Part shown: in pieces, positions 10,582-57,800 of the stretch | How positions within the stretch are numbered: position 1 is the stretch's first letter | How the letters are laid out: each line of letters opens with the position of its first letter | Source: Asterochloris sp. CNOR1 | Taxonomy: Eukaryota > Chlorophyta > Trebouxiophyceae > Trebouxiales > Trebouxiaceae | Direction of reading: 5' to 3' | Assembly: GCA_963969365.1 (NCBI GenBank) | Contig: OZ017760.1 | Location: 1,612,001-1,676,000 of the forward strand | Length of the DNA stretch: 64,000 nucleotides | Notes under the pieces: model-generated | Told to the model about the DNA's origin: nothing | The model's database searches: none | What the model saw: only the letters and a program-made list of their open reading frames with translations | Program-made: the position numbers and the translations under genes

Positions 10582-13500
10582 ATGGCAGACCAGGCATCCC
10601 CGCAAACAAATGGGACAAATACGACCAAGGCCACAGCAGCGTTGCCTGCAGAGCACAAGCCTTTATTGAAGTGAGCCTGCCCCATACACCTCCATCCTGC
10701 CCCTCCTGCCTGCACGCAGGAAATTTGCATCCTGTGCATGAGACCTTTTGGGCCAGTCATTCCATGCCAGATCATTTTGATGTTATTTGATGAGACTGAC
10801 GCCCACACTCTCTGCCTGCCAGCAATGTGGCTTTCTTTGACATAGATGGCAGCCTGGTGCACTACCCCCAAACGCTAGAGAAGTGGGGCGACATCACAGG
10901 GCCCTCTGTGCTGCCAGGCTGCTTCATGTATGTCGACAGGGTAAGCAGTGTAGAGTGTGTGCATGTGGAGCAGAGCTACAGGGACTGTGCATGCGTGACC
11001 GGTGTGCCTAAGCCTTCTGCTGTCTTCCCCAGCAGCTGGAAATGTACATCATCATGAAAAGTACATTGCTGGGCAGAGCAACTGCATGTGACTGCCTGCT
11101 TGCTGGCGCTGGGCACCTCAGCAAGCAACCTGCAGCTGATGCGGCTGAGCCTTCTGCTGGCAACCCAAGCACCTCAGGCTCAATCTTGGTGAATTGCAGG
11201 AGAGTGGCAAGCGCCACAAGTTGCTGAAATTGCCCCCCACCACAACGGGAGTGCAGGTGATTGCAGCATGAGCCTGGCCTGTCCAGAAACCTCTTGCTCC
11301 CTTGTTCAGCATGCACAGGCACCAAGCTCTGGGCATGCATGCTGCGCAACCTCCTGCACATGCAGCGCCATCTCTCTGAGCAGTGCACCCTGAATGCCTC
11401 AGGCGCTGCCTGCTGACATCCTTGCATGATTGGCTGCCTGGCTGCCGCAGGGCGTCATCTCTGTGCAGACGTTGACAGCTCTGGCGAAGCTGCGTGAGGC
11501 AGGAGTGCGCCTGGTGCTCATAACAGGGGCACGCATGTCCACCCTGCTGCAGCGGCTGCCCTTCCTACCCGCCGCTGATGCTTTTGTGTGTGAGAATGGT
11601 GGGTGTTGCAAAGAGCAACTTTGCACCAGTTGCATCAGTACTTCATCTGGCTGCTGCAGAGGCCCTTGTGTGCGATCCCAGGCATGCCAACCTCCATGCC
11701 GTGCCAGCCATCGCATGTTGGGTGCTGCACCAGCTTTGCCAAAACCTCCTGCTGCAGATGTCTATGCAAAAGGTGGTAACCATAATCAACTTGCATGACA
11801 GAGTGCAGCCCAATAGCCAGGGTCTCTGTCAAAGGGGTCAACTTGAGTGAAGGCGAAAACAGCATCAGGCCTGCTGCATGTTGCCAACCCGCACAAAGCT
11901 TGCAGCCAGACGTCTGCCTCTCTCAGGTGTTGGGCAGGCTGACCACAATACGATGCATGTCCTATGACAAGCTGAGGCCTGACTGACAGCAATGCTGCAG
12001 GTGGGCGCATCTTCTACTCCAATTCGAGCCTGCCAACAGCCCTTCCTTGGGCAGAAGACATGGACTGGAGGAAGCTGCTCAATTCCACAGGTGTGCACCG
12101 TGCCTCATGCAAAGGACCTGCTTAACTGAGTTGTTTGCTTCACTTCTTGCGCAAAATGCAGCCCAATCCATGCTTAGGTTGTGGCTCTGCATTGCTTGCT
12201 CCACCCCAGCTGCCAAGCTCAATGCTTGGCCTAATTTTGTAAGGGATTTGAGTGCAGCTCAGAGGGTCAAAGCTGGGTCGTAAGAGGCATCTGCCCTGCC
12301 ATCCATGCAGCTGGGCCGCCAGACTCTGAGGTCACCCCACCGGAGAAGCGCAAGGGCAAGCTGTGGGAGTTCTACAGAGAGGTTACTTCTCAGGGCTGGC
12401 CAGTTGACTGCCACAGCTATACGACAAACTTCAGGTGTGCTGCAGCATGAGCACAGCCCAGTAGTGTGGAGCACCTAGGGGACACCAGGCCATGCAAGGA
12501 CCGCAGGCCTGCAGCAAGCATGTCACAGACCTTCGCTTGCACCTCGCGCAGCCTGCACAGCTCATTGCGGTGCGTGAGGCACAGAAGTTGCACCTGCGAT
12601 AGCCCCACAGTGCTGGGCTCGGCACACAGGGGGTGCCCAATATGCAGGACGGCCCCTGCGTTGGACATCTAGCCATGCTGCTGCCACCCAAGCGCTCCTG
12701 CCGCCCGACGCTGTTGTGGGCATGAAAAGCTGCTGCATACATGCCTGGGCAAGCCTTTACAAAACTGTTTATCGCTGTTGGCCTTAGACCACCATGCATC
12801 CCATCAGCTGACTGATTGCAAACCGACTCAACTGTCACCCAGAGGCTCATGCTGCTGGACTGGCCGTGAAGAGCCATGCCTGCTTCCTGGCCTTCCCACC
12901 ATGAAGGTGACAGCCTGAATGACTGCAGGATCAAGGTGCGGGACCCCCACTCTCAGGATGACCTTGAGAAGCTCTTGCAGAGCCTGCCAGAGGAGCTGGC
13001 GACCTCCTACAACCTGGGCCTGGCAGACGTGTACCCAGCCATCAGCGGCAAGCACAATGCAGCCAAGCACCTGCTGGAGGTGTTCAAGGCATCGGCAGAC
13101 TCCGCAGTGCTGATGGCTGACGATGACAATGACCTGGGTGAGATCTTTTGGTAGCCAAAGCCTGTGCCTGCTGGAGGTGTTCATGTTCCAGGGTGCTAAA
13201 CTGACGATGACACTGACCTTGGTCGGCATAGCTGCCAATCTTGTCTCAGGCAAAGGGCGGTCTGCTGTTTCTAGGTCAGGCTGCTGCATGACACAATGTT
13301 GAAAATAGGCAGCAGCACTGCCCCGGCTCAGGCAGGGCTGACAGCTTGCTGCTGCATTACAAAGCTGGCGCCTGGCAGAGCCGAAGCAGCAGGCCTTGGC
13401 GAGCATATGGTCATCATGATCGAAGCCTGTTTGATGTGCGTGAGCACAACCCAGCAGGCATAGCGTCCATCAAAAAACCTCAGAGGTTTGGGCCACCTTA

Positions 13501-14457: not shown

Positions 14458-17400
14458 ATGGTTCAGGCAACAACTGTGGTTCAGCCCGGCGCAGTGGACC
14501 CCATGTCTGGCAAGCTGCCCCACGTGCCCAGCCACCAGAGCGTGCTGGATGTCAACAGGATGGAGGAGTCGCCTAACTCGCCAGGTGGGTGCCCCAGGCG
14601 CCAATTCTCTGTGACAGTGTGAATGGTACTTGCCTCATCCCCAGTCTGGATCACGCTGCCCTGTTGCTGCACACCCAGCACCAGTGCAGTGCAGGCGGCA
14701 CAGACCAGCAGGTGTCACGTCACCCGCACACCTTCTGTCAGGGAGGCTGACAGGGCTGGAGCAGGATTTTGCTGAAGTTGACAGCCTTGTTGCCACCATT
14801 CCACAGTATGGCTTTGCTTGCCAGTTCTCTGGGCAGGAGTTGTGCAGTAGCAGCTCCTGCAACTAATCTTGCCAGCATGACCTCATCTGGCAGTCTGCAG
14901 CCAAACCTGAACCGACATGTCCGTCTCTGTGCTCTGCAGAAGCCCAGGCTGTGGCGGCAATCATGAAGAAAGTTGGCAGTGCCAGTGCCGCTGAGCGCCA
15001 GGCAGCCGCCAAGGAAGTCGTGGAGCAGGTCAAGAGCTCAGGGGTCACTGGCCTTGTGGTGAGTCGCCTTGTGGCGAGCTCTACCCCATCCTGCATCCTT
15101 GAGGGGCTGCTGCCTTGGGGGCAGTGCAGGCAGAAGTGTGGCATCATGTCAAGTGCTCGCCCCATGCACAGCTTGCCCTCATAGAGTCAAAGGAAGTGTT
15201 CTTGCACATGGTGAGGCTGCTCAGGGAGGGCTTGCGGTTGGTCTGCGACTGGGAAATTGCCTGTGACCAGTGGCTCGGTGGTGACAGGACGGCAGCCAGA
15301 AGATTGCCCTGCCATCTGTAATGCACAGCAGGGCTGCGGCGTGCACACAAACCTGGCTGCCTTTGGTGATTGTGCAGGCGCCACGAGCAGTCATGTAATG
15401 GTCTGCTCAAGTTCCTAGCCTTGGGAGCTCTGTCCTGACACCTTCTTGCAACTTCTACAGCCGGGGGACACCTCTGCAGTGTCACAGCCTGCTGTGCAAG
15501 AGGCGGCTGAGGACGGCTTATGCAGCTGCAGCTAGCCTCTTTCTTACGGTGCTGGCATTGCAGGGGCAACACCTGCTGCTACACAGCTTATCTTCCACTG
15601 CTTGATTGCAGAGCAACAGCCTGCTGGACAAGATCAAGGCAGCAGTGGAGGACAACTCAGCGCCCCTGGCGCGTGAGGGTGCCCTGGCAGTGCTCACAGC
15701 TGTGGCCAACAGTGGCGGCACAGTGGCTGAGCCCTACGTGGTGCCTCTGTTGGACCTTGTGCTGGAGCGCTATGCCGACAAGGTGACAAGTCAAGAGTCC
15801 TGCATGTGCATGCATTTGTGCACGCATGTGCCCTGGCACAGGCTGAGGGGGCTGCTGCAGCTGACCTGGCCTATACCCTGGCCTACAAAGCTGGCTGCAC
15901 TGTTGCCATGCTGCAAGGCTCCAGCTTTCACAGATAGACATGTCTGCATGCATGTCTTGGCCTGGGGAACAGGGCAGTCCCTCTGCTGCATCATGCAGGG
16001 CCCTGTTGGTTGCGAAATGTCCCTGCTGCCCTCCATTGTGCTGACAGACCTTCCTGTGCTTACCTCTGCAGGTGAAGGCAGTGGCAGATGAGGCAGCTGT
16101 GGCTGCCAAGGCCATCATTGCCAATGCCAACCCGGCAGCAGTGCGGGTCATCCTGCCCCTGCTGTTCGCAGCCATGGAGCACAAGCGCAAGTGGCAGGTC
16201 AAGGCGGCAGCCCTCAAGCTGCTGTCCTCCCTGCGCAAGAGCGCCCCCAAGGAGCTGCAGGTGGAGCTGCCTGCGGTGGTGCCCCAGGTGGCTGGCTGCT
16301 TCGCAGACGCCAAGCCCCAGGTCAAGGTGAGCCCCCTGGTGGGGTAGGGGACGTAAAGGGATTGACTGAGCTTCGCACAGGGGCATTACCAGACACATAA
16401 GGGGCTGGCTGACCGCATCGCGATTTTCACTGCCAAGCCCTGGAGCCACTCGTACACATTTGGGCATTCAACTGCCTGAGACAGAGGGCGGGCCGTCAGC
16501 TCTGCATGTACATGCCTGGATGTGCAGCAGTTCATTACTGCTGCCTGCCATGTTGCTGCTGCCTCAACCTGCCTGCCTGGCTCCCATAGGGCATTTGTAC
16601 CCGACTTCCGCACTTTTCGACACCCCAACTATCAAGGCTGAACCTCGCTATCTCGCCTCTGCCTGCAGAGCCAGGCAATCAAAACCCTGACGGAGGCCTG
16701 CGGCGCAATTGGCAACCGTGACATTGAGCCCTTTGTGCCAGCAGTCATCAGCTGCATGGCCAACCCTGCAGAGACAGCCGAGTGTGTGCACAAGCTGTCT
16801 GCCACCACATTTGTGCAGGTGAGCTGCTCTGTCTGCTTGTTTCAAAAAGTGATGGTTTAGGGAGGTTGAAGAACCATACACCATACCCCTTGAAACCCAC
16901 CTGCCTGCACAGATTGTGTCGGCCATGCTGATGCCTGACCTCGCCTTATGTGCTGATCCTGTCACCATGCTTCGGCCTTCATACCTGGGGCCAAGCCTGT
17001 GCGATGGTAAGTGCTGTTTCCGCTGTGTCTTGATCAGATCATATCAAAGCTGGGGCAGCAGCCCTTTGCCTATGCTGACAAGCTGTGTAATATGACCATT
17101 GCAAACACATGTTTGCAAAAGCTCGCCCTGGTGATCATGGTTCCCCTGCTGTTCTTGTGCATGACTCAATGTTGATCGCCTTTCTCTCTCCTGCAGGCAG
17201 TGGAGGCCCTGTGCCCCTGCTGTGTCTGACCCACTGATTGCCGACGTCCTCACTGCAGGCAGTCAAAGCGCCTCTCCGGGCGTTCAGGGTGCCCCTGCTG
17301 TTCCTTTGCCTGACCCACTGATTGCCAACGCTCTCGCTGCAGGCAGTGGAGGCGCCTGCCCTCGCAATCATGGTGCCCCTGCTGGTGCGCGGCCTGCGCG

Positions 17401-20400
17401 AGAGGACGACCGCCATCAAGCGCAAGTCCTGCGTCATCATTGACAACATGAGCAAGCTGGTGGAGAACCCTGCCGACGCCGCTGTGTTTCTGCCCAGGCT
17501 GCTCCCTGGTGTGAAGGAGGTGGCCGAGAATGTGTCTGACCCTGAGTGCCGGTGAGTGCAGCACCTGGGCATCTGGCCAGGACGAGCTGTGGGTTGCTTC
17601 TAGGATGCTTCTTGCTTTCTCCCCTGCCAGTAAGGTGCAGGTTTGCAAATTGCATCAACAGCATGTGCTGCAGTGCTTTGGCACCGCCCACATGATGTGG
17701 ATACCAAGCGGTCAGATCTTCAGCTTGACAGCTTTTGTGCCAGTAGCACTGCATGTGCTGGCAGCCTGCAGGTCCTCACTTCCTGACATGCGCAAATGCT
17801 GAGGCTGCTGCTGTTTTGCTGCAGGTCTGTGGCTGGCAAGGCCCTGGTGACCCTGCTGAAGGTGGGCGCTGAGGGGGAGACCACCGCCATTGTGGCCAGT
17901 GAGCAGGTGAGCTAACTTACGACCCAACCAGTCTCCGTTGTCATCCTGCCCTGCAGCCATGCCAGGTTGGCTTGGTGGGGCAACGCAGCGGTAGGCACAT
18001 GCAGGGCCAAAGGCTCCTGGCCCTTGTTGTGTTGGCCTCAGTGTCTGCTTAGCTGAGCTCTGAATGTTCTCTCAATCAGACTGGCAGCCTGTGCCTGGCC
18101 TAGCCCCTGTGTCCCTGCTGAACATGCATCACCCTTTCCATACACATGTACATTGGCAGGATGGCCTGAAGTGGAAGCCTGCCCACCTTGCCTGCAGGAG
18201 GTGCTGGGCCAGCTGCGCAAGGAGACTGCCAAGGTGGGCAAGGGCGGTGACGAGATGGTGTTCGCCTATGTGACTGCCCTGACCGCTGGGCTGATCAACC
18301 GCAGCTGCTATGACGAGGAGGCCTGGAAGGAGGTGGGTCAAGAGCTTCTTTTTATTGTGCTGGCTTGGCCAAGCTTCTGCGTCTTCTGTGTCCTGGCTGC
18401 CTGCCTTGGCAGCGTCTGCCTCCTGTCCGCCAATTCCCATTGGTGTCATCACTGCGGCGCAGCCATGTTTGCTCGGCATTGCCTGCTTCCCAAGCCTATT
18501 GACTGTTCATCTGCTCTATGCAACTCACTACACTGCAGCCTCATTACAACGAATCCTTGCACTGCAGTGTGTGGTGCCCTACCTGGGTGCCTTCCTGGGC
18601 AAGGCTGAGCCTGAGGTGGTGGCCAAGGGGCTGCTCTCCTTCTTTTTCAAGGAGATGCAGGAGAAGACCAAGTCGACCGAGGAGTTTGAGGAGGGCGAGG
18701 ACCTGTGCAACTGCGAGTTCTCCCTGGCCTACGGTGAGCTCCTGGGCCTGTAGGTGCATGGGCCTATGGTGATCCCCTGGGCCTGTGGGTGCATGGGCCT
18801 AGGGTGAGCTCCTTGGCTTGTGGGGTCATGGGCCTATGGTGAGCTCCTGAGCTCCTAGGTTTATGGAGGGAGGGGACGACCAAATATGGTGAGCTCCCAT
18901 GGGAGTGGGAAGACCTTCAGCAATGCCTAGGCTCGTTGCTGAATCAATCTCATAACTACCTGCATCATCAGCACCCATATGCTTCAGTGCTAGCTGGGGA
19001 AATGCTGGGCCCTCGCAGGTGGTGTTGTTCTGTAGAAAGTGGCGTGGCTGCAGCTCAACTCTGCCCTGATGAATGGCCAGCTAGTGCTCAATGTGGTGTA
19101 CCTCTGCCCTGCAGGTGGCAAGATCCTGCTGAACAATGCTCGCCTGCACCTGAAGAGGGGTAAGCGGTATGGTCTGTGCGGGCCCAATGGTGCCGGCAAG
19201 TCCACCCTGATGAGGGCCATCAGCAATGGCCAGCTGGACGGGTTCCCCCCCAAGGAGGAGTTGAGGACGGTGAGGACTCTCTCTCATGCTCCTTGCACAC
19301 ACTTCGCACAGGGCGATGGGTCCCTGAGGAAGGCTATCTGAAGCTCTTTTCTCTCACACTTTACCCTGGCTGGCAAAGCACCCAGCAGAGACCTGGGTGG
19401 CTTCTGTCTGCATAGGCAAGGGCTTCAGCCTGCATCTTCCTGGCTTTGGGTCCGGGCCTGCGTCACAGTTTATGGTGTCGTCAGTGCCGTGGCCCGCTGT
19501 CTGACGTTTTACTATTAGTCTGGCACCCTGCGGTGGCAATAGAGCTTTTCTGATTGATGTATTGGACTGATTGCAGGTGTATGTGGAGCACGACATTGAC
19601 TCCAGCGAGAGTGACATGGCTGTCGTGGAGTTTGTGTATGCTGACAAGATCCTGCAGGGTAAGCTGCTTGAGAACATGATCCTGTTTGTGCTGTTGGGGC
19701 AACTGTGTTACTGAGTGTGTTGTCGGCTTGAGCTGCTTCTCCAGTTCATCCCGTCAAAGCTGCAGAACCTGTGGTTCAAATTGTGTCCAGAGCCTGTGCT
19801 TGCTCAGACCTCTGTCTCCCGTAACCAGCCGCTCCTGTGCTCGACCTGCTGTGTTGACTGCCGTCTCGTATGCTGACTGCTGTTCTGCAAATCTGCTGCA
19901 GACGCCAGCCACCCCAGCCATGGTGCCGTGGAGGAGATCTTGACCAGCGTGGGCTTCACGGAGGAGATGCAGAAGTCGCCAGTGGGCAGCCTGTCCGGTG
20001 GCTGGAAGATGAAGTTGGCTCTGGGTGAGCATTCTTGCCTGCCGCTGGATATAGCTGCCTGTGCAGCCTGAACGTGCCTGTTTGTTTACAGTTCTGGTGA
20101 GGGTGGCCTGCACAGCCTCAACTTCCACTGATACACTGCTTGCGCCAGAGTTGCCATGGTAAATCTGCTCGTCTGCTGCAGCATAGCTTCCCCACCACAT
20201 CCTGTTTGCTTGCATGAAGATCTGCTAGCATGTGTGCCACTAGCACTACCGCTGGTGTTGTGGCAGTGCCTTAGCTGAGTGTAGTGATGTGCCCCCTGCA
20301 GCCCGCGCTATGCTGATGAAGGCCGACATCATGCTGCTGGATGAGCCCACCAACCACCTGGACGTCACCAATGTGGCGTGGCTGGAGAACTACCTGACCC

Positions 20401-23400
20401 ACCTGCCTGACGTGACCTCCATGGTCGTGTCCCACGACAGCGGGTTCCTGGACCATGTGTGCACCGGCATCATCCACTATGAGAACCGGAAGCTGAAGCA
20501 TTACAAGGTGAGCTCTGCTGCCAGGGATGGCCAAAAACTAGTCTCGGGGTTGGTTGTGGTCACAGGAAGCTGAGGCACGACACATGCTGCTGCTACATAC
20601 TCAGTAGGGAATGGCTCAGCTGCACAGGGGCAGCAGTTGTGCCAGCTGCTACAGCTTGTCTGGCTTACATCAAATTTGCCAAGTCTGTTGCACAAGCTTT
20701 CAGTTGCCACCTTGTTAATTGTATGAGCGCAACGTCAGTGCCTGCAGCTCCAGGCCAGCTCTGCATTCCACATTTGGCCCGCACTTCTGAGCAATGCCGA
20801 CCCGTCTCTGCCCCTCCCTACAGGGCAACCTGTCTGAGTTTGTGAAGAGGGTGCCAGAGGCGCGCAGCTACTATTCCCTGGAGGACACCCAGCTCAGCTT
20901 CAAGTTCCCTGAGCCCGGCTTCCTGGACGGCATCAAGACCAAGGACAAGGCCATCCTCAAGATGACACGCGTCGGCTTCACGTGAGTTGCGAGCTGTGCA
21001 GCCATGTCGCCCTGCCAAGAAGCACTCTGCACACTTGCTGTAAAACTGGGTGCAGGAGGGTGGAACCCTGCACCATGCAGCGTTGCACTGATCATGCACA
21101 ACATAATGACCTTCTGGAACCCATGTGGCTGGCCCAGCCGCGCACATCGCAGTGCTGTGCATCTGCATAGCATTATGTTGCAGTCTATGAGTACATCTTG
21201 GAACCTTTATCCCAGTTGCCACATGATGGGATTGCATCAACTCCCTAACACCTCAGGTACAGATATCGTTGACCTCCTGCAGGTACCCCAACACCACCAA
21301 GAAGGTTGTAGAGGGCGCCAGCCTGGCAGTGACGCTGAACAGCCGCGTGGCGGTGATCGGCGCCAATGGTGCTGGCAAGTCCACCCTCATCAAGGTGTTG
21401 ACAGGTGAGAGGCTGCTCCCATGGTGCAGTGGGGTCCTGCCTGACGAACATGCCAGCCTGAGCATCCCAATTTGGCACACTCCGCAGCTGTCCCCTCATG
21501 CTGTTACCTTTGTCAAAACCTATAATGGAATGCATTTCTTTGCGTGCAGGGGAGCTTGAGGCCAGTGAGGGCACGGTGACCAAGCACCCCAACCTGCGGG
21601 TGGCCTACGTCGCCCAGCACGCCTTCCACCACATTGAGAAGCACCTGGACAAGACTCCCAACGAGTACATCCAGTGGCGGTATGCTGGTGGGGAGGACAG
21701 GGAGGAGCAGGAGAAGGTGTCTCGCCAGGTGAGGCTTGCCCGCCAGGGGTCTCTGTCTGCTGCCGCCTCGCCCGGCCAGCGCAAGTTTGTGGTGCGCGCT
21801 TGTGGCCAGGGGTCTTTGTCTGCTGCTGCTTCGCTGGGCCAGCGTGAATGTGTGGTGGACGCTTGTGGCCATCTGGTACTGGGGCTTGAGGGGCTTCCAT
21901 TGAGATTGGTCAAGCTGGCACGCAGCATTCATAGCCCCGTCAGCCTGCAGCAGCAGTAGGCGCTCGGGTGTGCACCTCTCCTTGCTCCTGTCATGTGTAA
22001 TGCTACATGGCCTCCCCCCTTCAGTCTAGCTCAGCTCCAGATTCATTTTGCATGGTCCCCTCCCTTCAGGTCAGCTTAGCTCAAAGTTGCCTTTTACCAG
22101 ATGAAGTTGTCAATCACCCACCTTGACCGCGTTGTGCCCCTGCAGACCAACGAGGAGGACGAGAAGAAGATGGCTGAGAAGCATGTGGTGGACGGCGTCA
22201 AGAGGGTGGTGGAGAAGCTGCTGGCGCGGCGCAAGCTCAAGCGCAGCTACGAGTATGAGGTCCAGTGGCAGGGGCAGCCCCCCACCAGCGAGTACACCAC
22301 ATGGTTCCCTCGCGACAAGTGAGTCCCTCAGTCAAGGGTCTACAAGGGTTTCGCCCACCTGCAAGTACACAGGCTATAAATGGGCGAGGGGGCTTTAGGG
22401 CTCCCTGAGCAACCTGCTCCTGCATTACAGCTTTGCACATCTTCTGTGTATTTGTGCTGCTGAGGTGCCTGTGTCGGCCAGGACAGATCTGGTGACTGGC
22501 ACAGGCTCTTTTGGGTGGGCCGCGGCCTGCTGTGGCCCACTTGAAGACGATCTGCAGCTCATTGATCTTGCAACCTTCATCTGGCTTTGCCCCTGGTAGG
22601 CCTTGTGACTGCCTAGCACTGGCTGTGTGGCTGACTGCCCTCCTCACTGCTTGCCCTGCAGGCTGGAGGAGATGGGCTTCGTCAAAATGGTGAACGAGAT
22701 TGACGCCCGGGAGGCAGCCAACCAGGGCATGGTCATCCGCCCCCTGACCCAGGCCAACATCCAGAAGCACCTGGAGTCTGTGGGCCTGGAGTCCGAGTTC
22801 GCCACCCACTCTCGGATGAGGGGCCTGTCAGGTGGGGCTGGGGGCTTTGGTGATGCTGCGCAGCTTGCGGTCTGACTCCTGCTGCGTGCTGCCGCTCATG
22901 TGGATCTGTGCTCCTGCCTGCCTTCACTGTTTGAGAGCAGTCTCTCAGGGTTGAGACTTCCAACTGCTGCTGCATGCTGCATCTTGTGTGGGTCTGTGCT
23001 TCTGCCTGCCTTTGTTTGAGGATTGCAAAAATTTGGCTAGCCGCACTGCTTGTACAGCCATGCAGCTCGAGGCCAGCTCTAGCTGTCTCATGCGTGCTGG
23101 GCTCGGCCATCCTGCCTGGCAGGTTTTCAGAACACCTGACAGGCAGGTGTTCGCCAAACCTGCCAGTCATGTGTCTGCCTAGCAGGACACCACTGGTGCC
23201 GCATGCTCCCTTGCCAGTCACAGAGTGACAATGCACACAATCCCTCCCTTCCCTGCTGCAGGTGGCCAGCGCATGAAGTGTGTCATGGGCGCAGCCACCT
23301 GGAACAACCCCCACATCATCGTCCTGGATGAGCCCTCCAACTTCCTGGACCGCGACTCCCTGGGTGCCCTCACAGCGGCCCTGAAGGGCTTTGGCGGCGG

Positions 23401-24085
23401 CGTGCTCATCATCTCCCACAACAAGGGTGAGTTTAAGCATGCATGGTTGCCGCTATGGGCTGTCATCGAGTTAGCATCACAGCAGCTGTCATACAAGGCG
23501 CTGCCTGCCACACACAACTAGTTTGTGCCCTTTGGCTGACATTTCTGCTGCCGGTCCTGCTACAGAGTTCACAGACGCCATCTGCCCAACCCAGTGGGTG
23601 GTGGCTAATGGCAAGGTGCAGCTCAAGGGAGAGGTGGACAAGGCCTCACGGGACGCTGACAAGCTGGACTGGAAGCAGGCAGAGACCACCCTGGACGCCC
23701 TTGGCAACACTGTCAAGGTCAAGGTGAGGAGCCGCCAATAGAGCACTTTGGGGCCGCCGCAGAGCATGCTCTGATCTGGGGAGGCAGCCATGCGGCTTCT
23801 GTACTGTGTGGTACAGCCCCTGGGGTGGGAAACCTTGCAGCCCTGCTTGTGGTAGCTTTTCAGAGGCCTGCTGCCTGCATCTGACTGGTTTCTGGCACAG
23901 CAAAAGCTCTGCTTGTTGAGGTGCTGAGGTGGTTGCAGAAGTTGCTCACCAACCGCTGTGCACCTCACCTGCAGGGCCCCAAGAAGAAGCTGTCCAACAA
24001 GGAGAAGAAGCAGAGGGCCAAGGTCAGGAAGGCCCGCCGCGAGCGGGGTGAGGAGGTGTCTGACACAGACGAGGATGACCTCTGA
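14458..24085 (+). CDS. eEF3: Translation elongation factor 3 (ABCF-type eEF3)
   Basis: Twenty-one coding exons: 14458-14584, 14940-15058, 15612-15782, 16072-16326, 16669-16818, 17343-17551, 17825-17906, 18198-18332, 18568-18733, 19115-19269, 19577-19658, 19902-20024, 20302-20507, 20824-20981, 21283-21404, 21550-21728, 22146-22318, 22662-22831, 23262-23426, 23566-23723 and 23975-24085. Together they give 1071 residues (yeast eEF3 has 1044). HEAT repeats fill roughly residues 40-430. The first ABC domain has Walker [10 protein letters not shown] (~495), signature LSGGW (~578) and Walker [12 protein letters not shown]. The second has GANGAGKST (~742), LSGGQ and [10 protein letters not shown]. 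Between signature and Walker A of domain 2 sits the eEF3-type chromodomain-like insert ([19 protein letters not shown]). The tail is Lys-rich with an acidic end. eEF3 is a ribosome-bound ATPase that helps tRNA release from the E site. It looks intact. Confidence 0.96.
17125..17342 (+). repeat. Three decayed copies of the eEF3 exon 6 start and acceptor
   Basis: Just before the true exon at 17343 the intron repeats the exon start (GCAGTGGAGGCGCCTGCC followed by ATCATGGTGCCCCTGCTG). Decayed versions lie at about 17125-17195, 17196-17264 and 17265-17342, each about 70-80 bases. Each ends in a plausible acceptor ('ctcctgcag', 'ctcactgcag', 'ctcgctgcag'). Two copies also share 'tgacccactgattgcc'. 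Only the last acceptor opens the conserved reading frame. Confidence 0.9.
18726..18860 (+). repeat. Four tandem copies of the eEF3 exon 9 donor
   Basis: The exon end and donor 'ggcctacggtgagctcctgg' is followed by three near copies, 'ggcctatggtgatcccctgg', 'ggcctagggtgagctccttg' and 'ggcctatggtgagctcctga', with a period of about 35 bases. The first copy is the real splice site (exon ends at 18733). Confidence 0.93.
21741..21880 (+). repeat. Two-copy 69 bp repeat in eEF3 intron after exon 16
   Basis: 'ccaggggtctctgtctgctg' and the related 'ccaggggtctttgtctgctg' start two units of about 69 bases, each ending near 'cgcttgtggcc' or its equivalent. The first unit begins a few bases inside the intron. 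Confidence 0.85.
22872..23025 (+). repeat. Two-copy repeat in eEF3 intron after exon 18
   Basis: Two units of about 64 bases share 'ctgctgcgtgctg' or 'ctgctgcatgctg', then 'ctgtgcttctgcctgcctt' or its near match, then 'gtttgag'. They lie at 22872-22935 and 22960-23025. Confidence 0.8.
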
Positions 24086-43908: not shown

Positions 43909-43993
43909 TTGTTCTGAGAAAAATGTCAAACAATTTGGCTAACCTTCAACAGTCAGTCTATTTCCACTCTGTCCATCTTAACCACTTTGTCAC

Positions 43994-46900: not shown

Positions 46901-49900
46901 AGGCTATCACTGCCGGCACAATGCTGCAGGCACCCAGCGAGCAGGTGTTCCTGCTGCAGCCCCAGCCCTGCAGTTTGCAGCAAGGCACCGGCCACACCCT
47001 GACACAAGCACTGGACCAGTGTCCAAAGCTGCAGCAGCACTGGCTGACCAGGGCCTGTGCAGCCTGCAGTAACATTATGGCACCCTGCAGGCTGCCTCTG
47101 CTTTTGAAGCATTCAACCAATGACTGACTCCTCTGCAGCCCTGGCCCACCAGAACGACTTCGACGTCTGCTGGTGCAAGGGCTCTGTGGCAGAGTGCATC
47201 TTCCAGCCCCTGATCCAGCGCATCCAGCAGGCAGGCGGCCGCATCGTGGGCGGCCAGTTTGTCACCAATGTGCAGGTGAACACCTGCCCACATGTGGAAC
47301 CTGGGGATTGGCTGTTGTGTGGCTGCATCGGCCCCTAGCAACTGGCAGCCAGGCTTAAGTCAGATGCTTCTGACTGGCTGGGCTGCGCTGTGGCTTGCTG
47401 CCTGCCTGTGTGCCACCTGCTACTCATTGCTGGCCCTGGATCTAAGTAGCTGGGCTGTTCTGCGGCGTGCTGCCTGCCTGTGTGCTACTCATTACTGGCC
47501 CACGGAGCTAACTTACCTGCCCCGTGCTGCCTGCAGGTGGATGCACACTCAGGTCAGGCCACGGGAGTGACCGCCACAGACCGCCAGGGGCAGAAGCATG
47601 ACTATCCAGCTGATGCAGTCGTCTTTGCTGTTGGCATCACAGGTGAGGCAGCAGCCACGACCCTGTTGCTGCTGCGCAAGGACTGCTGTGGCATGTCCAC
47701 AACAACCTGCTGCAGCAAAGGGGAGCCTCATTGCGCTGCACTGCAGTACCAGTGGCGTGCAACTGTCCCTGCAGACTTGACGCATCAGCAGGGGAATGTC
47801 ACCTCGGTGCGCTGCAGCACCAGCACCGTGCAGCCATGTCAGCAGCTCATGCCTCTGCCGACATGGGCAGAGCAACAACTGGTTGCTTGCACGACCTGCA
47901 GCCCAGGAAAGCGTACCTGCAGAGCTGACGCCTCAGACCTGCGCTACAGTGCAGGCATGCAGAAGCTGGTGAGCGGGTGCTCGTCCCTGGCGCAGCGCCC
48001 AGAGTTCAGGAAGATCCTCAATCTGAGCGGGCTGGACGTTATTGCCACCCGCCTGTGGTGAGGTTGCAGACATGCATCTGTTTGAAAGCGGACACTTGCT
48101 ATGCTGTGTCATGTCAGACGACCTGCTGCTGCCCTTAGGTGCTGCCTGCCTGGGATCTGCTAGATGCCCTGGACGTACACTCCCCTGCAGCCTGGTCTGT
48201 GTTGGGCTGACTGCCCTTGTTGGGGTGGTGTTAGGGTGCAGAGCAGGCTGCACATGCTAGCTCTCTCGCCCTTTGGCGGTGGGTGTACAGGTGTGTCGCA
48301 TTGCTAGAAATCCTGCATGGCAGGCTGCCGGTCTGATCAGCAGCACTGATGCAGATGGCTTTCTAGTGTTGTGCACATGTTCTGCAATCTCCTGCTTCGC
48401 ACAATGTGCCACACCTTCAGGTCTCTTTGCACTGCCCTGCAGGCTGGACCGGAAGGTTCAGACCCAGTTCCCCGCCAACGTGCTCTCGGGCTTTGATGAC
48501 ACGATGGGCAGCACCTATTTTAACCTCAATGAGCTGCAGGTAGGCTGGTACTGACAGCCAGCAAACAGCGACCTGGCGGTGGGCGGCGGACGGTTTGCTG
48601 TGTGAGGCCCAGTCAGTGTGCTGTCAACATGGCAGCAAAGCTGCCTCTGCCCTGTTCATGCGCTGAGCACCTCCTCTGGAGGTAGGGCGCTGCAGCAGCA
48701 AAAAGGTTGGCTGGTTCCCTATGCAGAGAAGTAGCTGCAGGGGTGTAGGGCAAGTTCTGACGTGAGCATACACAGATGCACATGTATTGGGTTGGAGATC
48801 TGAATGGGAATGTGAGTTCCTGCGACTTGTAAACTAAGCAGCTTGTGTGCAATTTTTTATAATTACAGGGTCACTTGACAGAACATCAGAGCTTGCCACC
48901 TCTACCCTGCTGAGCGGGTCCGCTGTCAGTATCGACAATGGCAGTGTGACTTCTATCAGTTGCTGGAAGCAGCACATTGCAGACTCAGCGTCATCAGCCT
49001 GTCTTTGCCATGCGATACAGCCAAAAGCATCCCTTTCTGCACTGCAGGACGAGTATGCTGATGAGCCTGGCACAGTGATTGCCTCAGACTTCTACCACTC
49101 CAATGAGCTGATGCCCCTATCTGACGAAGCCATCATCAATCGAGTGGTCAGCAACATGGGCGCCTGCGAGCCAGCCTTTTTGGGAGCGCAGGTGAGTACT
49201 GTTGGGGAGGCATCAGTGTGGTGTTTTGGGTTCAGCAGTGTCAGGTCGCACACGCCATGTCAGCAGCCCTCCCCGGGTGACTGGTGGGTGTTTTTGGAAG
49301 ATGTAGCCTGGCAGTGCAGGGGTTGCACAGACCTGGTCAGCTGCTGGCAGCCATGGGCAGCACAGATCAGTATGTGTTAGAGCCTGTTGACCTGCCGGTG
49401 CAGGGGCTGCACAAACCTTGTTGGTGTCGTCGCAGGGGGCCAAGGGTGAGCACTGTCGCATGGAGTTGACCTGGCATGGGCTTGCCAGCAGCCTGCCAGG
49501 GGGGTCCACTCAAAATTGTGGGGAAGGTATTGTCAGCCTGCCAGTGCAGGCTACAACAGCCGCACGGGGTCGACAGGCAGGAGCAGGCTGGCGCAGGCCT
49601 GCTTCATGCAGATCGTGTACAACAGACAGTCAATGACTGCTGCCTGCCTGCAGGCCTGCCTGCTGTGACAATTCCCCAAGACCCCCTGCTGCTACAGCCA
49701 TTTTCATGCTCAATGTGCAGGTGATTGACAGCAAGGTCCTGCGCTTCCCTAAGGCTGTGACCCACTTCAGTCCGGGCTCCCACGCCTCGCGCCCGCGCCA
49801 GCAGACTTCATTTGGCAACGTCTTCATCGCTGGGGACTGGGTCAGGGACCTCGATCATGGAGCCAATGGGCTGTCTCAGGAAAGAACTTTGCACTGCAGT

Positions 49901-50535: not shown

Positions 50536-53500
50536 TTAGACAGAACCTGAGACAGACACTGATGCGTTTTGATGCTTCGCCTTGTCCATGTAGCCAGCAT
50601 AGGCCATCATCATCTCCTTGTACAGCCTGCAAGCAGGCAGGCAGCACCTCAGGCACTGGCAGTGTCAACTTGCCTGAGGCAGACAAGGAATGATTGCAAC
50701 AATGCAGGCCGAGGTCACTTCAGACTGCAAGGCCGTGGGCCACAGCCAAGTTTGAAGGCAGGCAGCCATCTAAAGGCTACCAGCGTGACCATCTTAGAAA
50801 CAAAGAGGAGTGCAACTCTCAGGTCTGCCGGCGAGCTTGCAGTTGCTGGGCCAAAGAATCTCACAGCGCTTCAGTCTTTTGCTTGCAGGCATTGAGGACA
50901 GGCAGCAATCTTCCGCAGTGGTGCAGGCTTTGATACATAGGGACCCTGAGAGTCCCCGACCTGCCCTCAAGCATAGATGGTCACGCAGGCCGGGAGGCAC
51001 ACAAAAGCATGCTCTGCCTCTGCTCACCTGCCCTCATCGGGCGCCATCAAGTAGATGTCGGCATAGACCTCGAAGCAGGGGCAGTCTTCCTTTAGCCTGT
51101 CCAAGCGCCACTCATCCCTGGCGAGCACATAGCAATCAAGGCAGCGCTCAGGCTTGGGGCCGTGGGCGTGGGTCAGAACAATGCTTGCGCTAGAGCCCCA
51201 GTAGCCTGCAGCAAGGAGGAATGACAGATGTCAGCGCACAATGATGCAGCTTTGCAGTATATGCTGCGCATGGGCCTGGGGCACTGGCACGGCCCAGACA
51301 ATGTCTGCGCAGGAGCCCCAGCAGCCCACATAGAAGACATGACACAAGGATGGACCAGGCTGTGCAGGCCAAGCAGCAAGCCATCAGCATGGGATCTGCA
51401 CAATGCTTGCATTAGAGCCTGAGTAAGCTCCAGCAAGGGGCAGGACCAATGCGTTACAGAGCTCTGGCAGCTACCCTCTTCAAGTGCGGGGCAGCCTGAT
51501 GCATGCATGGCAGCTGCAGCAGCCTGCACAAGGGATGACGTAAGTGTGACAGGCACGTTGAGCCCTGGTACAAGCACGCCAGTAGCCTGTGCAATACATG
51601 TAGGGTGTGCAGCTGAGGCCGGGGCATGACGCAGTTTCCAAGGCTGCGTGTAGATGCCTGCAGGATGCCACACAGCACTTGCAGTGCAGCAGATGGTGTC
51701 ATGTTGTCTCATTCCTCAGCTCCTGAAGTGATGGACTGCCCTACAGGTGCAGGGCTATGAGGCACCACCTCGGGCTCTGTTTGGGCTTAGAGCAGGCAAG
51801 GAACCCACCTTTCCAGTTGAAGCGGTCTGGGAGGGTGACGATCTTGGAGCCAGCACCAAATCCATAGTACTCATTCAGCATTGACTGCTCGAAGGCGGGG
51901 AAGTCCCAGCCATGGTTGTTGCCAAAAGCCTTCAGAGCAGGCCACTCTGCTGCCATTCCCTGCAGGCAGAAGGTACTGCAGTCAGTCCAAAGACTTGTGT
52001 GTGTTTGTGCAGACTCCTGTTTGCAAGAAGGCTGCACAGCGCAGAGCAGGCCAGGTTCTGCCTGGCCCAACTGGTTCAACCTCCTGCTGTCAGGTGAGAC
52101 ACGTGCGCCCTGATGGCAGGGTATGCAGGCAGCAGGATCAAGGCAAGGTGCAGGTTCGGCAGGCGAGCCTCATCAAGCAGAACATCCAGAGGGGTCCCTG
52201 GGCGACTCAGTGTGGCCCCAGGACTTCAGTTGAGATCATTGCGCAGCTTGCTGCCTGAGCAGGCCACGCTCCTAGACCCAATCACTGTGCCCCAGCACTT
52301 TTGCAGGAGATAGCACACAGAGGTTCTCAAAAGCACGACAGCTGGCTGCCTGTAATCCCTAGCCCCTGACCAAGGCCACCTTGCTCTGTAGCCTCTCACA
52401 AAGGCTGCAAGCGTAGCAGCTGACCAGCACACCACCACCCACAGTGCCTTGAAAACCAGGGAGCACACAGGCCTCACCGAAATGTTCATGAGCATGACGC
52501 CACTGTTGAACGTATTGAACTCATCGCCTCTGTGGTTGACTTCAGGAGTCAAAGCAATGACTGCTGGCCTGTCCACCGTGCAGGGGTCAAAGGTGCTCCA
52601 GAACATCACATCCACATCTGTATACACTGCAGACAAGCACACAGACGGGCTGTGTCAAGAGCAGCCAGCTGAGGCTCACTCTCACATACATATTGCTTGG
52701 TGCAGTAGTAGTTCTTGATGGCAAGGCACAGCTCAAGGGACCACAGGGGCAGCACTGAGGCAAGAAACTGCAGGACAGAGGCTGCGTTGCTGCAGGAGCA
52801 CACAGCAGATGAGCCTCAACAGGCTGCCAATGAGAAGCAACAGGTGCCTTGAAGCACTTCTGCAGGACACCAGAGGGTTGCCCAGCCAAGCCTGGGCAGG
52901 CACCTGCAGCTGTCCGTCTAGCTTCCTGACAGCTGCAAGTGCACTCACAGCTCGTGACTTCCAGCTGCAGCGACACGCAGCACACTGATACCAGCAAGCA
53001 GCAGCCTGCAGCCAGAGTGGCCTGAGGGCGGTCTGCAGCTGCCTGCAGCAAGCAATGCCCCTGAAGCAGCGGCAACCCAAAAGCCCAGCTGGACTCACAG
53101 ACATAGTCCTTGTTGATGACCCCTGCCAGGTCTGGATGGGACTTGCCCAGCTGTTTCAGCAGTTCAGGCACAATCGTGGGCAGGTCCAGGCGCGCATAGA
53201 TGTTCTCCACGTAGAGGTGGTAGTCCTCGTGGCCGCGGGCTTCGTTGCGTTCACTGGGCTGCCCTGCCACGGCCTGCACGACAGGGAGGCAGCTCCTGAG
53301 GGTTGGCAGACACATAGTGATGATGGGCTGAGGCTATTTGTGAGCTGCACTAGGCTTGCTGGGCTTGCCCTGCCATGGCCCGAACCTCACAGATGTCTCG
53401 GTCATCCATGCTTGGGGGTTGATCCTCAGAGCTGCACGCTCTGCTGTGCCTGCTGGGCCCCCCTGCCATTGCCAGCATGGGATCTTGAGCATCACTGGAT

Positions 53501-54650
53501 GCTGCACTCCTCTCTTAGCAGCATTCATATTCTGCACACCGCGGTAGCAGGAGTACACCTGAAGGGAGGTGCTGCTGCCTGTGTCCCGGCCTGTATGAGC
53601 ACTGGCGTGGCCTTCAGGCACGACTGCATGACGTGTCTCCTGCTGGCGTCAGTGCAGACGCACCCTAGGACCCAATGCATGTCTGTTTGCCAGTGCTCCT
53701 GCAGAAGATGTCTGCCAAACCCTACTCAAAAGCACGCTGACCTGAATGTCCTTCAAGAAAGTGAGTCTGTGGTGGTACACCAGGCAGCCATGCTCCCGGA
53801 ACCAGTTGAGCATGTCGTGATAGGTGTTGGCGTCTGACTCGGGCTGCTGATCTGCGAAGATGAGGATGGGCACCAGGTTGGGGCTGTTCTCCTGGGCAGA
53901 CAGAACTGCTGCCTGGGCATAACGCCTGCAGCCAGTGGGGGCCACAGCAGTTAGACAGAGCAAACGCAGCCATGTCAATTGCTTGGGCGCAGAGATGCAG
54001 CAGGCCAGCACTGCTCAATCCCAATGTGGAGGGCACAATGCCTGCAGGCCGGGGGAGACACCCTTTGCTGTGGCTGGCTTTCTGTCAAAGATCTGGGACT
54101 GTTTTGGGCGGACAGCACTGCTGCCTGGACATTGTGCAGAATGCGTCTGCTTTGGCGGCGGGCCTGTTATGAAAGACCTGTTGCCTGGACGTAGCGCTTG
54201 CAGGCAGCTGGAACTGACAACCTCATGAGGTGAAGATCAGGCAGGATACACATGGGCCACCTGGGTGACTGATGCGGTCAAGATGAGGCTTGGGGCCCAC
54301 CTGGCTGGGACAAACTGACTGATGAGCAGGTCTGGCAAGCGCAGGATTGAGCAAAGCCAAACTGCTCACCAGTAGTCCTTGTCAAGGGGGGTGTAAGAAC
54401 TCTGAGCTGTGAACCAGAGCATGCGCTGCCTGCAGCCCTTCCAGCGTTCCACAGGGAGCAGGGCAACATGCTGGTCCAGCATTTGCAGACTGGCCTGCTG
54501 CAGGGCCTTCCTGGTGGTGTTGTGGTGATGCTGACTCAATGCGCTGCGCCAGAAGTTACCCCAGCCCGACACCTGGCCTGTCAGTTGCAGGCCCAGGAGA
54601 CAGGCCAGCAGCAAGGCCTTCCAGGAGGCCCGATGGGGTCTCTCCCACAT
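50536..54650 (-). CDS. Secretory-pathway glycosyltransferase with a DxD motif
   Basis: Seven exons in transcript order: 54650-54370, 53925-53742, 53273-53099, 52626-52478, 51959-51809, 51205-51028 and 50626-50536, 402 residues. A basic N-terminus then WKALLLACLLGLQLTG is a signal peptide or signal anchor. The nucleotide-sugar fold shows LWFTAQSSYTPLD, LVPILIFADQQ, LNWFREHGCLVYHH and FLKDIQ. YTDVDVMFWSTFDP carries the metal-binding D-x-D near residue 215, FNTFNSGVMLMN follows, and FEQSMLNEYYG gives the second conserved block. The layout resembles GT8-like retaining transferases (galactinol synthase or glycogenin type), but I cannot name the family with confidence. Cys-rich residues near the C-terminus (ERCLDCYV, DCPCFEVY) suggest disulfides. 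It likely acts in the Golgi or ER lumen. Three of its introns hold decayed copies of the next exon start. Confidence 0.87.
51271..51440 (-). repeat. Two decayed copies of glycosyltransferase exon 6 start
   Basis: The true edge (plus strand 51171-51212) reads 'caatgcttgcgctagagccc' then 'gtagcctgcag'. Copies lie at 51271-51333 ('caatgtctgcgcaggagccc' then 'gcagcccac') and 51385-51440 ('caatgcttgcattagagcct' then 'gagtaagctccagcaag'). The spacing is about 100-120 bases. They are upstream of the exon in transcript direction. Confidence 0.9.
53357..53480 (-). repeat. Decayed copies of glycosyltransferase exon 3 start
   Basis: The true edge (53253-53285) reads 'ctgggctgccctgccacggc' and then the acceptor. 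Similar blocks 'ctgggcttgccctgccatgg' (53359) and 'ctgggcccccctgccattgc' (53452) lie in the intron upstream in transcript direction. Confidence 0.7.
54094..54211 (-). repeat. Two decayed copies of glycosyltransferase exon 2 start
   Basis: The true edge (53881-53935) reads 'cagacagaactgctgcctgg' then 'cgcctgcagccag'. Copies lie at 54094-54145 ('cggacagcactgctgcctgg' then 'tgtgcagaatg') and 54160-54211 ('gaaagacctgttgcctggac' then 'gcgcttgcaggcag'). Confidence 0.85.
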
Positions 54651-54837: not shown

Positions 54838-57800
54838 TCAGTAGTCCCTCCTCCTGGGGCTGCGGTCTCTATCTCTGTCCCCACCATCTGCGGCATGGTG
54901 ATCACACTGGTATAAGTTCATGCAAGGACTACAAGAGCACCCAGCCGCACCAGAGCTGATATGAAGCACATCGCTTCTAGAGCAAGCCAGGAACTTTGTT
55001 GAGCAAAATCATATGAGCTCAACGTGCAGAATTGCAGCAGTTGCAGCAAGCCCGCAGCATCAGCAGGTTCGCAAATGAAGGAGGCTCACCACCTCTGAGA
55101 CGTGCAAGAGCAGCCTCCTCGCGAGACTTCCTGTCACCGCCGTCCCTGCCTCCCCTGCGCTTTGGGCGGCCAAACTCATCATATCTGCAGCAGCAGCAGC
55201 TGGACCATGAGGAGCAGAGGAGCAGGGCTTCTTGCATGCATCACGTCCAGCCATGCAGCAGCTGGGCTGCAGGATGGCTATGTAGTGAAACTGCAGGCGT
55301 GCAGGTTGCACAGCTCACGGCCATGCAGCTCCCAGGCTGTGAGAGATGCTGCCGTTGCTGTCCAACATGGACAGGCTTAACAAACTCAGACAGGCGCTCA
55401 CTCATCATCATCCCGACCGCCTTCCCGCCTGCGGCGGCGAGACTCCTCCAGCTCCCTCTCATCCAACTCCTGCAAAGTAAGTTTGACTTCCTTTGAGTGC
55501 CTCAGTGCGAACAAACACTGATGCAAGGAGCTAGGGGAAGACATGCCCAACACCAGCAGGCACGAGATACCAATTCTCCAAGCGACATGGCTGTCAAGTG
55601 CAGCAGGTTCCTGCGCAAAGCAAATGACAACTGATGCAAGCAGCTGGGTACAGATACACCCAGCACCAGCAGGCATGGACCACCACCATTTTGAGTGACA
55701 TGGCTGTAAAATGCAGTGAGCTCCTGTGAAGATCAAGTAGCACAACCAGGATTTGGTGCCTGCCGCTGCATGTCAGTGACACCTGCTGCTCTTGCCATTA
55801 GTCTGCCACACTAACAGGGCTCTGTGCAGTTGAGGACCTGGCTGCAGTCTCATGAAGCACGTACTGCTGGCGCCTAAGCCCCCTGGCTGGCTAGAGAACG
55901 TGTGAGACCCTTGAGGTGAAAATCAGTATGCCATGCCTTTACAGGTAACAGTGGCTGGCCTTTCCCTGCCTGTTCCAAAGGAGGAAGGGCATAAGCACCT
56001 TGTAGCCACCAGCCTGGCCCTCCCGAGTCACGTCCACGGTGCCAGGCTTGGGCGCGTTGCACTGGTTGCAGGAGGAGCGGCGAGCCCAGTTCACATTGCC
56101 GCAAGAGGTGCAGGTCCAGTCTTCAGGCGCAAACAGCCCTGCAGTGGTGGGGGCCTGATGTCAGCAAGGGTACGCAGGGTGCTTGAGACAGGCAAAAGGA
56201 GACCTGCGGTGGCGGGTCAGCTCCTCTCAGCACGCGCATGCTGAGTGCTTCGGACACCTTGCAAGTACAGCCACGCCAGTGCTTTGGCACAAATAACTTG
56301 CCGAGCTCTGCAGCAATTGCATGCTGGCTGCCTGATATCTTTCTTGCAGGGGAGATCTGTGACAGTCCTGCCCTGCAGTGGTAGTAAGGACTGGCAGATG
56401 TGCTCAAGCACACCGCTGCTTGGGATGCGCACTGCAGGTGCAGTGCTCTATGTCTGCCGCATCAGTAACTGAGACACTTGCACCGAGACCCAGCAAGGGC
56501 TGCTGTTATCAGTGCTGCCCCACCTGGTGGACCCTGGGGGGCAGCCTCAGTCCTGCCCCTTCCTGCGCCACCACCATGGCCGCCACGGTCTGCAGTACAG
56601 AAGCACAGAGTGTCCCAGGCAAGGCACAGCAGTGTTTGCAGGCTGTACAGGGACTCCAACGTATCAACCATTGCCCTCAGCATGAGGCTACTTTATGTGC
56701 AGACCAATAAAGTGTAGCGTCACATGCTGTGCTGTGCCTATGGCAAGGAGGACGCAAGAAGAGTGCAAGAAATGTGTAGGTTCCTGTCTGACAGCTGACA
56801 GCCCCTGTCATTACAGCTAGCGGCCCCTCCCATGCAATGCACGGGGGACCTTATGAGCATGTCGCATTCAAGTGCTTTCATGGATGTTTACAGCAATTCT
56901 GCCTTCGATTGGACTGCGGAGCTCACCTCCCCCATAGCCACCACCGCCTCGACCGCCACCATAGCCTGCAGCACAGGTGGTGGACTGTTGTCGTGCGCAG
57001 AAGGGCATGCTGCATGTTTGCTTATCTGGGCAGAAGATGATGATGATCCAATGCAGGCCAGCCCTGTGGCAGATAAGGGGTCAAAGGGTTTCGCGGCTCA
57101 CCACCACCTCCTCCATAGCCACCCCCACCCATGTCACCGCCAGCATCAGCAGGCTTGGGCGTCCCACAACGGTTGCAGGAGCTCCTGCGGGGCAGCAGGG
57201 GCGCCTTGAAGCTTCAATGACGATAATCGTCAGCAGCATGCTCACTGCAGACTCTACTGCCACAATGTCAGCAGCAGGGCGCTTCTGGTGCCATGACCCA
57301 GCAGGTGCGCATTGCCATGCAGATTGTGCATCGCGGCTTGGGGGAGTGCTCCACCCCTGGGCACAGGCATGCACAGCACCAGCAGCTGCACATTCCTCAT
57401 TGGCAACAGTAGCTGAACCAGCATCTTGCGAAGCAGCAGTGAGTCCAGAACACTTCGTGATTCCAAGGGATGGACAATCCTCCTCAGCAGTAGCGGGTGC
57501 CATCTTTGCAGGCAGGCTGCTGCACCCACGGGCAGTGCTCACTTTGAGGCAAAGCAGTTGTTGCCACAGTTTGGGCATGGCCAGTCCCCAGGGCGGGGGG
57601 CAGGGCCGCCGCGACCGCCGCCGCCACCAGGTGGGCCCCCAAATCTGCCGCCACCACCGCCACCGCCGCTGCCGTAGCCTCCTGCAGCACAAGCTTGCTC
57701 AACCAAAGGATTTTGACAGAAGCTCACTCCCAGGTTACAGCCGTTGGGAGAGGTACTGTGAAGTCACGTCAATTTGAGCACCCACAGCTTCTTGTCCATC

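What the first reader, a model, noticed from the sequence alone, without database searches (positions are those of the whole stretch)
11000..55000. Intron growth by tandem copying of exon edges with their splice sites
Seen in sequence: in at least five genes (HAD, eEF3, DedA-like, TMEM45-like, glycosyltransferase), intron DNA next to an exon holds one to three decayed copies of that exon edge. Exon starts are copied upstream with the TGCAG acceptor; exon ends are copied downstream with the GTGAG donor. Units are 35-120 bases with graded decay. The copies act as decoy splice sites unless decay has silenced them. Splice-site duplication is known as one way to make introns, but I know of no genome where this edge-directed copying is so common. 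A mechanism (slippage, repair templated across the junction, or something tied to splicing intermediates) is inference.
Basis: partly seen in the sequence, partly recalled or inferred. Interest (0 to 1): 0.9.

Follow-up and report, generated by a model that had tools for sequence, protein, structure and literature searches.

The report
Mostly blind tandem duplication lengthens introns
Introns in this stretch of probable green-alga DNA do contain decayed copies of neighbouring exon edges with their splice sites, but about as many as random short tandem duplications would leave, so nothing need be aiming at exon edges.

Summary
In all five named genes, intron DNA beside an exon carries decayed direct copies of that exon edge, often with the splice site. 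Direct local self-similarity far exceeds chance: 45 matches against 0.4 in shuffles. Inverted matches are at chance.

"Edge-directed" copying is not needed. Of 24 duplication events in 70 introns, 11 cross a junction; random placement predicts 10.1 ± 2.1, and eight nested thresholds agree within about one s.d.. Exon edges match their own intron in 13 of 138 cases and intron-internal segments in 17 of 252 (Fisher p = 0.43); exon interiors in 0 of 74; edges against a foreign intron in 0 of 138.

Best explanation: short tandem duplication filtered by selection on the mRNA.

Two hints point the other way, both weak. The edge/internal ratio is 1.83 (bootstrap 0.83-4.78), against 0.78-0.98 simulated. 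Junction copies are short for their distance (P 0.02-0.1, one variant <0.001). At least 6 of the 21 strongest cryptic splice sites lie on such copies. No related genome or RNA was available.

The parts
17125..17396 (+). eEF3 intron 5 end and exon 6 start (exon starts 17343) with copies at 17211-17312 (lag 84) and 17127-17211 (lag about 146); decoy acceptors at 17259 and 17197
   Evidence: boundary supported by yeast eEF3A alignment
18726..18866 (+). eEF3 exon 9 end and donor (last exon base 18733) in 35-base tandem units; decoy donors after 18768, 18803, 18838
21742..21871 (+). eEF3 intron 16, purely intronic tandem duplication, unit 63
22875..23012 (+). eEF3 intron 18, purely intronic duplication, lag 88
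13107..13223 (+). HAD exon end and donor (last exon base 13137) and its copy near 13193-13223, lag 84
   Evidence: HAD identity
32547..32830 (-). TMEM45-like exon end and donor (last exon base 32742) and copy at 32547-32640, lag 188; copied donor lost
33687..33810 (-). TMEM45-like exon end and donor (last exon base 33783) and copy at 33687-33719, lag 91; copied GTGAG kept
26931..27178 (-). DedA-like exon start (26969) and copy at 27089-27178, lag 158; TGCAG kept
   Evidence: VTT domain
25799..26407 (-). DedA-like exon start (25836) and copy at 26267-26407, lag 467, with a probable further copy near 26142-26166
51159..51438 (-). Glycosyltransferase exon start (51205) and copies at lags 222 and 120; copied acceptors decayed
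53879..54211 (-). Glycosyltransferase exon start (53925) and copies at 54031-54061, 54094-54132, 54171-54211; acceptor in the range of real sites only at 54041
47369..47501 (+). Carotenoid-isomerase-like gene intron 6, purely intronic duplication, lags 72 and 65
45159..45271 (+). Carotenoid-isomerase-like gene intron 2, purely intronic duplication, lag 63

Best explanation
Short local tandem duplications (roughly 20-250 bases) strike this DNA largely without regard to splice junctions. In genes with introns of about 300 bases, a unit of about 100 bases that touches an intron has a large chance (2u/(I+u)) of crossing one of its two junctions, and then copies an exon edge together with its splice site. 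The mRNA stays unchanged only if the outer, original site goes on being used, so surviving copies lie inside the intron and the intron grows by one unit. Copies then decay neutrally. A copy compared with a conserved exon diverges at about half the rate of two intronic copies, so exon-edge copies stay visible longest and catch the eye. Shown: direct-only, distance-limited duplication, and a junction share that fits random placement. Inferred: slippage or microhomology-mediated tandem duplication as the DNA event, and selection as the filter.
For: Direct matches 45 against 0.375 expected, concentrated at short lags; inverted matches at chance, 4 against 2-5 at score 14 and 1 against 0 at score 16, three shuffles. 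Junction-crossing events 11 of 24 against 10.1 ± 2.1 expected; over eight nested thresholds observed/expected 15/13.3, 12/12.2, 11/10.1, 11/9.1, 10/8.7, 8/7.6, 6/6.0, 5/3.8. Blind-duplication simulation: junction share 0.53, 0.47-0.56 over five parameter sets. Segment test: edges 13/138, intron-internal 17/252, exon interior 0/74, foreign intron 0/138. Donor and acceptor sides balanced, 6 and 5. Some events are complete tandems: eEF3 lags 35 and 84 and 63. Exon-exon matches are in frame in 11 of 12 cases, though 10 of these lie in one Gly-rich gene.
Against: Edge/internal hit ratio 1.83 in real introns (14/138 against 14/252; bootstrap 0.83-4.78) against 0.78 and 0.98 in two matched simulations. 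For 7 of the 9 firm junction events the rest of the presumed unit shows no significant similarity (p 0.07-0.98). A full-length tandem unit decaying with small indels is disfavoured for several of eight cases tested: P(sim<=obs) 0.02 or less under all three indel rates for TMEM45 lags 188 and 91 and GT lag 212, 0.04 or less for DedA lag 467; HAD lag 84, DedA lag 158, GT lag 272 depend on the rate and GT lag 222 is compatible. Seven of 9 firm junction events have a match below 0.4 of the lag against 2.0-4.7 simulated, P 0.022-0.095 in four variants and <0.001 in one with units limited to 120 bases. Expected counts use present lags, which later indels may have changed. Gene models lack RNA support.
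Confidence: 0.74

Rival explanations
1. Edge-directed copying: a process tied to splice junctions or splicing intermediates (R-loops, reverse-spliced or reverse-transcribed lariat-exon intermediates) preferentially copies exon edges into the adjoining intron.
For: Edge/internal hit ratio 1.83 against 0.78-0.98 simulated, interval 0.83-4.78; several exon-edge copies include the splice site and little further intron; 7 of 9 firm junction events have short matches relative to their lag, more than simulated; exon interiors are never the source, 0/74.
Against: Junction share of events fits random placement; purely intronic events are as many (13 of 24); the two strongest junction events, both in eEF3, are complete tandem units; absence of exon-interior sources is also required by tandem duplication.
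Confidence: 0.12
2. Repair-mediated capture: double-strand-break repair (SDSA type) inserts short copies of nearby DNA into introns, as described in primates, not necessarily adjacent to the source.
For: Explains short matches at long lags; precedent PMC2671141 (abstract and two sections read).
Against: Exon interiors are not sources, 0/74, though blind capture should take them; inverted copies are at chance; the strongest events are exact tandems.
Confidence: 0.09
3. Chance or low-complexity G+C-rich similarity and shared splice-site consensus.
For: Some weak pairs (HAD lag 97, eEF3 intron 7 lag 262) and the Gly-rich exon repeats of the RNA-binding gene may be of this kind.
Against: Shuffles give 0.375 against 45; the real sequence at lags of 1000 and beyond gives 0-1 matches per bin; edges against foreign introns 0/138.
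Confidence: 0.02
4. Functional alternative or mutually exclusive partial exons, or regulated decoys that throttle expression.
For: 9 of 15 copied sites are within the score range of real sites.
Against: All 10 decoys tested give premature stops; 6 of 15 copied sites have fallen below the range of real sites; no RNA data.
Confidence: 0.03

Closest known systems
Potato RdRp tandem duplication crossing an intron-exon boundary (PMC4974935; passages, including much of the abstract)
   Same: A tandem unit holding an intron's 3' side and the following exon's 5' side, with acceptor and exon edge copied, as in eEF3 intron 5
   Different: There a new intron arose; here the existing intron appears simply lengthened and the copies decay, over several introns
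[quoted passage not shown]
   Same: Tandem duplication supplies duplicate splice sites
   Different: That model duplicates exonic AGGT to create an intron; here intron-exon junctions are duplicated and the intron grows
Repair-mediated proximal duplications in primates (PMC2671141; abstract and two sections)
   Same: Short, closely linked duplications; by its Table 2, 295 of 824 landed in introns and 4 sources were partial exon/intron segments
   Different: There at least one copy is inverted and breakpoints carry filler or deletions; here only direct copies exceed chance and some are exact tandems
Minisatellite-like tandem arrays in introns
   Same: Head-to-tail units, e.g. 35-base units at eEF3 donor 18733 and 123-base arrays in the RPS10 gene
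   Different: Most events here have only two or three decayed copies

Membership tests
Local tandem duplication (blind) | Copies in direct orientation only | tested here: met
   direct 45 against 0.375; inverted at chance
Local tandem duplication (blind) | Copies close together, excess falling with distance | tested here: met
Local tandem duplication (blind) | Placement independent of splice junctions | tested here: met
   by events: 11 observed, 10.1 ± 2.1 expected. The segment test is looser: ratio 1.83 (0.83-4.78) against 0.78-0.98 simulated
Local tandem duplication (blind) | Match covers the whole lag (complete unit) | tested here: inconclusive
   met for eEF3 lags 35 and 84 and 63; not for 7 of 9 firm junction events
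   13/138 against 17/252, Fisher p = 0.43; rerun 14/138 against 14/252, ratio interval 0.83-4.78; no excess by events
Introner elements | The same element in introns of many genes | tested here: not met
   within the window only: edges against a foreign intron 0/138; few matches at long lags. Whole introns were not aligned to each other, and no genome is held
Rogers-type intron gain | A new intron absent in relatives | not testable with these tools
   no algal relative found
Repair-mediated proximal duplication | Sources include any nearby DNA, either orientation | tested here: not met
   exon interior 0/74; inverted at chance
Tandem alternative exons | Copy keeps an open frame in the mRNA | tested here: not met
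   10 of 10 decoys tested (of 15 copies) give premature stops

The most novel reading that the evidence does not exclude
Besides blind tandem duplication, some junction copies may come from a second process that copies a short exon edge into the adjoining intron at a distance, raising edge copies up to about twofold. In this lineage such junction duplications would be a main supplier of strong cryptic splice sites (6 firm and 2 probable of the 21 strongest in 70 introns) and so of raw material for alternative splicing.
Probability: 0.13. Interest if true: 0.7.

Novelty: new member of a known kind. Interest (0 to 1): 0.32.

Why it matters
It offers a simple account of how introns in compact genomes lengthen: random short tandem duplications, which by geometry alone often straddle splice junctions. 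It warns that 'edge copying' can be largely an effect of geometry plus slower apparent decay of exon-derived copies. As a by-product, duplications seed strong decoy splice sites, a measurable route to new alternative splicing. One paper on Chlamydomonas and relatives says that the selective advantage of their long introns remains unknown (PMC8226300, passages).

Tried and rejected
Early gene-finder runs drifted into nonsense and were discarded; one search used fixed splice profiles. A first edge test gave 12 of 138 edges at p <= 0.01; its rank against other introns was weak because introns differ in length, so it was replaced by matched segment classes. The first pairwise aligner mostly aligned sequence to itself and was replaced by a banded aligner. 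Searches for an algal relative found none: genome contigs gave four bacterial loci with ABC-type matches, viral contigs nothing. A PDB search with the HAD fragment gave nothing useful. Low-complexity similarity was rejected. Literature searches gave no report of the same pattern in an alga among the titles and abstract openings listed; passages of PMC5966456 were not relevant. This is not proof of absence.

It is not, because an internal pair can be hit from both copies, the four segments overlap in shorter introns, and edge copies decay more slowly.

Rows dropped: 8 of 78 predicted introns before as doubtful; before one more was dropped (RPS10x 4, inside a fused model) and GT intron 1 was restored, giving 70. 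Two of 140 edges under 25 bases were dropped. Intron-internal segments came only from introns of 180 bases or more. Bases 1-3900 (123-base arrays) were left out of the match scans, and lags were limited to 15-500 for event counts. Two of the 11 junction events (eEF3 intron 7 lag 262, HAD lag 97) are weak; 9 are firm. The zinc-finger RNA-binding gene model is poor, so its intronic event (55517) is uncertain; the donor of GT intron 4 may be misplaced; TMEM45 and DedA were predicted as one fused model and the false joining intron was left out. 8 of the 9 predicted proteins of 100 aa or more were sent to Pfam, where the HAD fragment and the glycosyltransferase had no hit.
Full report
SETTING. The window looks like nuclear DNA of a green alga (57% GC, many introns, TGCAG acceptors, GTGAG donors); that attribution is inference. 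No genome is held for it. I wrote a small gene finder; the accepted run gave nine models of 100 aa or more. The eEF3 model, 1054 residues in 21 exons, matches yeast eEF3A (E = 7e-274, query 31-1052) and stays collinear across the joins in the part of the alignment printed. Pfam supports RPS10, HAD, DedA/VTT, DUF716 (TMEM45-like), a sugar-transporter-like protein, an amine-oxidase-type protein (called carotenoid-isomerase-like here from recall) and a RanBP-zinc-finger RNA-binding protein. The glycosyltransferase has only a sub-threshold GT8 match, E = 0.017. Of 78 predicted introns I used 70; the median was 312.5 bases in the set, which differs by one intron from the set onwards.

THE OBSERVATION. 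A scan for ungapped direct matches at lags 15-500 over bases 3901-64000 gave 45 at score 16 or more, against a mean of 0.375 in eight block-wise dinucleotide shuffles. The excess falls with distance: 24, 11, 6, 2 and 2 matches in the first five bins of 105 lags, then 0-2 in the bins sampled out to 16 kb. Inverted matches are at chance: 4 against 3, 2 and 5 at score 14; 1 against 0, 0 and 0 at score 16. Examples: eEF3 exon start 17343, with copies at lags 84 and about 146 that carry intact TGCAG acceptors; eEF3 exon end 18733, with three further 35-base units carrying GTGAT, GTGAG and GTGAG; glycosyltransferase exon start 53925 with three upstream copies.

IS IT EDGE-DIRECTED? (1) Events. Clustering matches gave 24 events in 20 of 70 introns; 11 cross a junction and 13 are purely intronic. 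If a unit of length u falls at random on an intron of pre-duplication length I, the chance of crossing a junction is 2u/(I+u), with another form where u exceeds I; summed over events this predicts 10.1 ± 2.1. Eight nested thresholds from 14 to 22 give observed/expected 15/13.3, 12/12.2, 11/10.1, 11/9.1, 10/8.7, 8/7.6, 6/6.0 and 5/3.8. (2) Simulation of blind tandem duplication, with neutral decay in introns and slow change in exons, gives a junction share among detected events of 0.53, and 0.47-0.56 over five parameter sets; observed 11 of 24, or 9 of 22 if two weak events are left out. At p <= 0.05 the counts are 24, 33, 1 and 7. This comparison is not a clean null, since an internal pair can be hit from both copies while edge copies decay more slowly. 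In a matched simulation blind duplication gives an edge/internal ratio of 0.78 or 0.98; a rerun on the real introns gave 14/138 and 14/252, ratio 1.83, bootstrap interval 0.83-4.78. So tests 1 and 2 show no edge preference, and test 3 allows one of about twofold without showing it.

WHY IT LOOKS DIRECTED. Only duplications that leave the mRNA unchanged should survive, which puts every junction copy inside the intron: exon starts upstream, exon ends downstream. A copy compared with a conserved exon accumulates differences on one side only, so it stays recognisable longer than an intron-intron pair. In the first simulation junction events have longer lags (median 135 against 79) and lower coverage of the lag (0.54 against 0.66) than internal ones. 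The data go the same way: the 9 firm junction events have median lag 158 and the 13 internal ones 63 (counted by hand). Exon-exon matches are almost all in frame, 11 of 12, 10 of them in one Gly-rich gene.

WHAT DOES NOT FIT WELL. For 7 of 9 firm junction events the remainder of the presumed unit shows no significant similarity (HAD p = 0.078 and DedA lag 467 p = 0.074 are borderline). A full-length tandem unit decaying with small indels predicts more: P is 0.02 or less under all three indel rates for TMEM45 lags 188 and 91 and GT lag 212, 0.04 or less for DedA lag 467, rate-dependent for HAD, DedA lag 158 and GT lag 272, and compatible for GT lag 222. Seven of nine firm junction events have a match shorter than 0.4 of the lag, against 2.0-4.7 expected; P is 0.033, 0.051, 0.022, <0.001 and 0.095 over five variants. 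Two of 13 internal events do (counted by hand). Later insertions between copies would explain this. So would a second, non-tandem copying process, but blind capture of nearby DNA should also take exon interiors (0 of 74) and give inverted copies (none above chance).

DECOY SPLICE SITES. Using profiles from the 70 introns, and allowing a shift of up to 6 bases, 9 of 15 copied sites score at or above the 5th percentile of real sites and 6 do not. Ordinary introns already hold many such sites: 7.8% of 1384 intronic GTs and 6.7% of 1660 AGs reach that level. Of the 21 strongest (11 donors and 10 acceptors at or above the real median), 6 lie on catalogued junction copies and 2 more (18888, 26143) probably do. 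Using any of the 10 decoys tested would bring a premature stop; three of these were read in the fused TMEM45-DedA model and one behind a doubtful first exon of the glycosyltransferase. Whether any is used is unknown.

SCALE. Detectable copies cover 2017 of 26357 intron bases (7.7%). Introns with an event are longer (median 454 against 298, p = 0.001), partly because longer introns offer more room.

KNOWN GROUND. A tandem duplication crossing an intron-exon boundary has been described in a potato gene (PMC4974935, passages). Tandem duplication is a recognised source of splice sites (PMC3443670, passages). Primate repair-mediated duplications have copied partial exon/intron segments (PMC2671141, abstract and two sections). 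What is seen here is a dense sample of the same kind of event in a probable alga. I could not test whether it is denser than elsewhere.

Noticed in passing
258-1475 and 2257-3438: Two arrays of about ten copies each of the same 123-base unit lie on either side of a single short RPS10 exon (about 1657-1729), so this exon is embedded in one tandem array; the intron end before the exon also looks like a decayed unit (by eye).
   Followed up: partly
18726-18900: Several strong GTGAG donors (after 18733, 18803, 18838 and probably 18888) within about 160 bases at the start of eEF3 intron 9; a natural test of which donor a spliceosome chooses.
   Followed up: partly
14503-24085: An apparently complete eEF3 (fungal-type translation elongation factor 3) gene with 20 introns.
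   Followed up: yes
9428-9568, 42776-43135, 63387-63434: Further local direct duplications outside the modelled genes; these regions may hold genes that I did not model.
   Followed up: no
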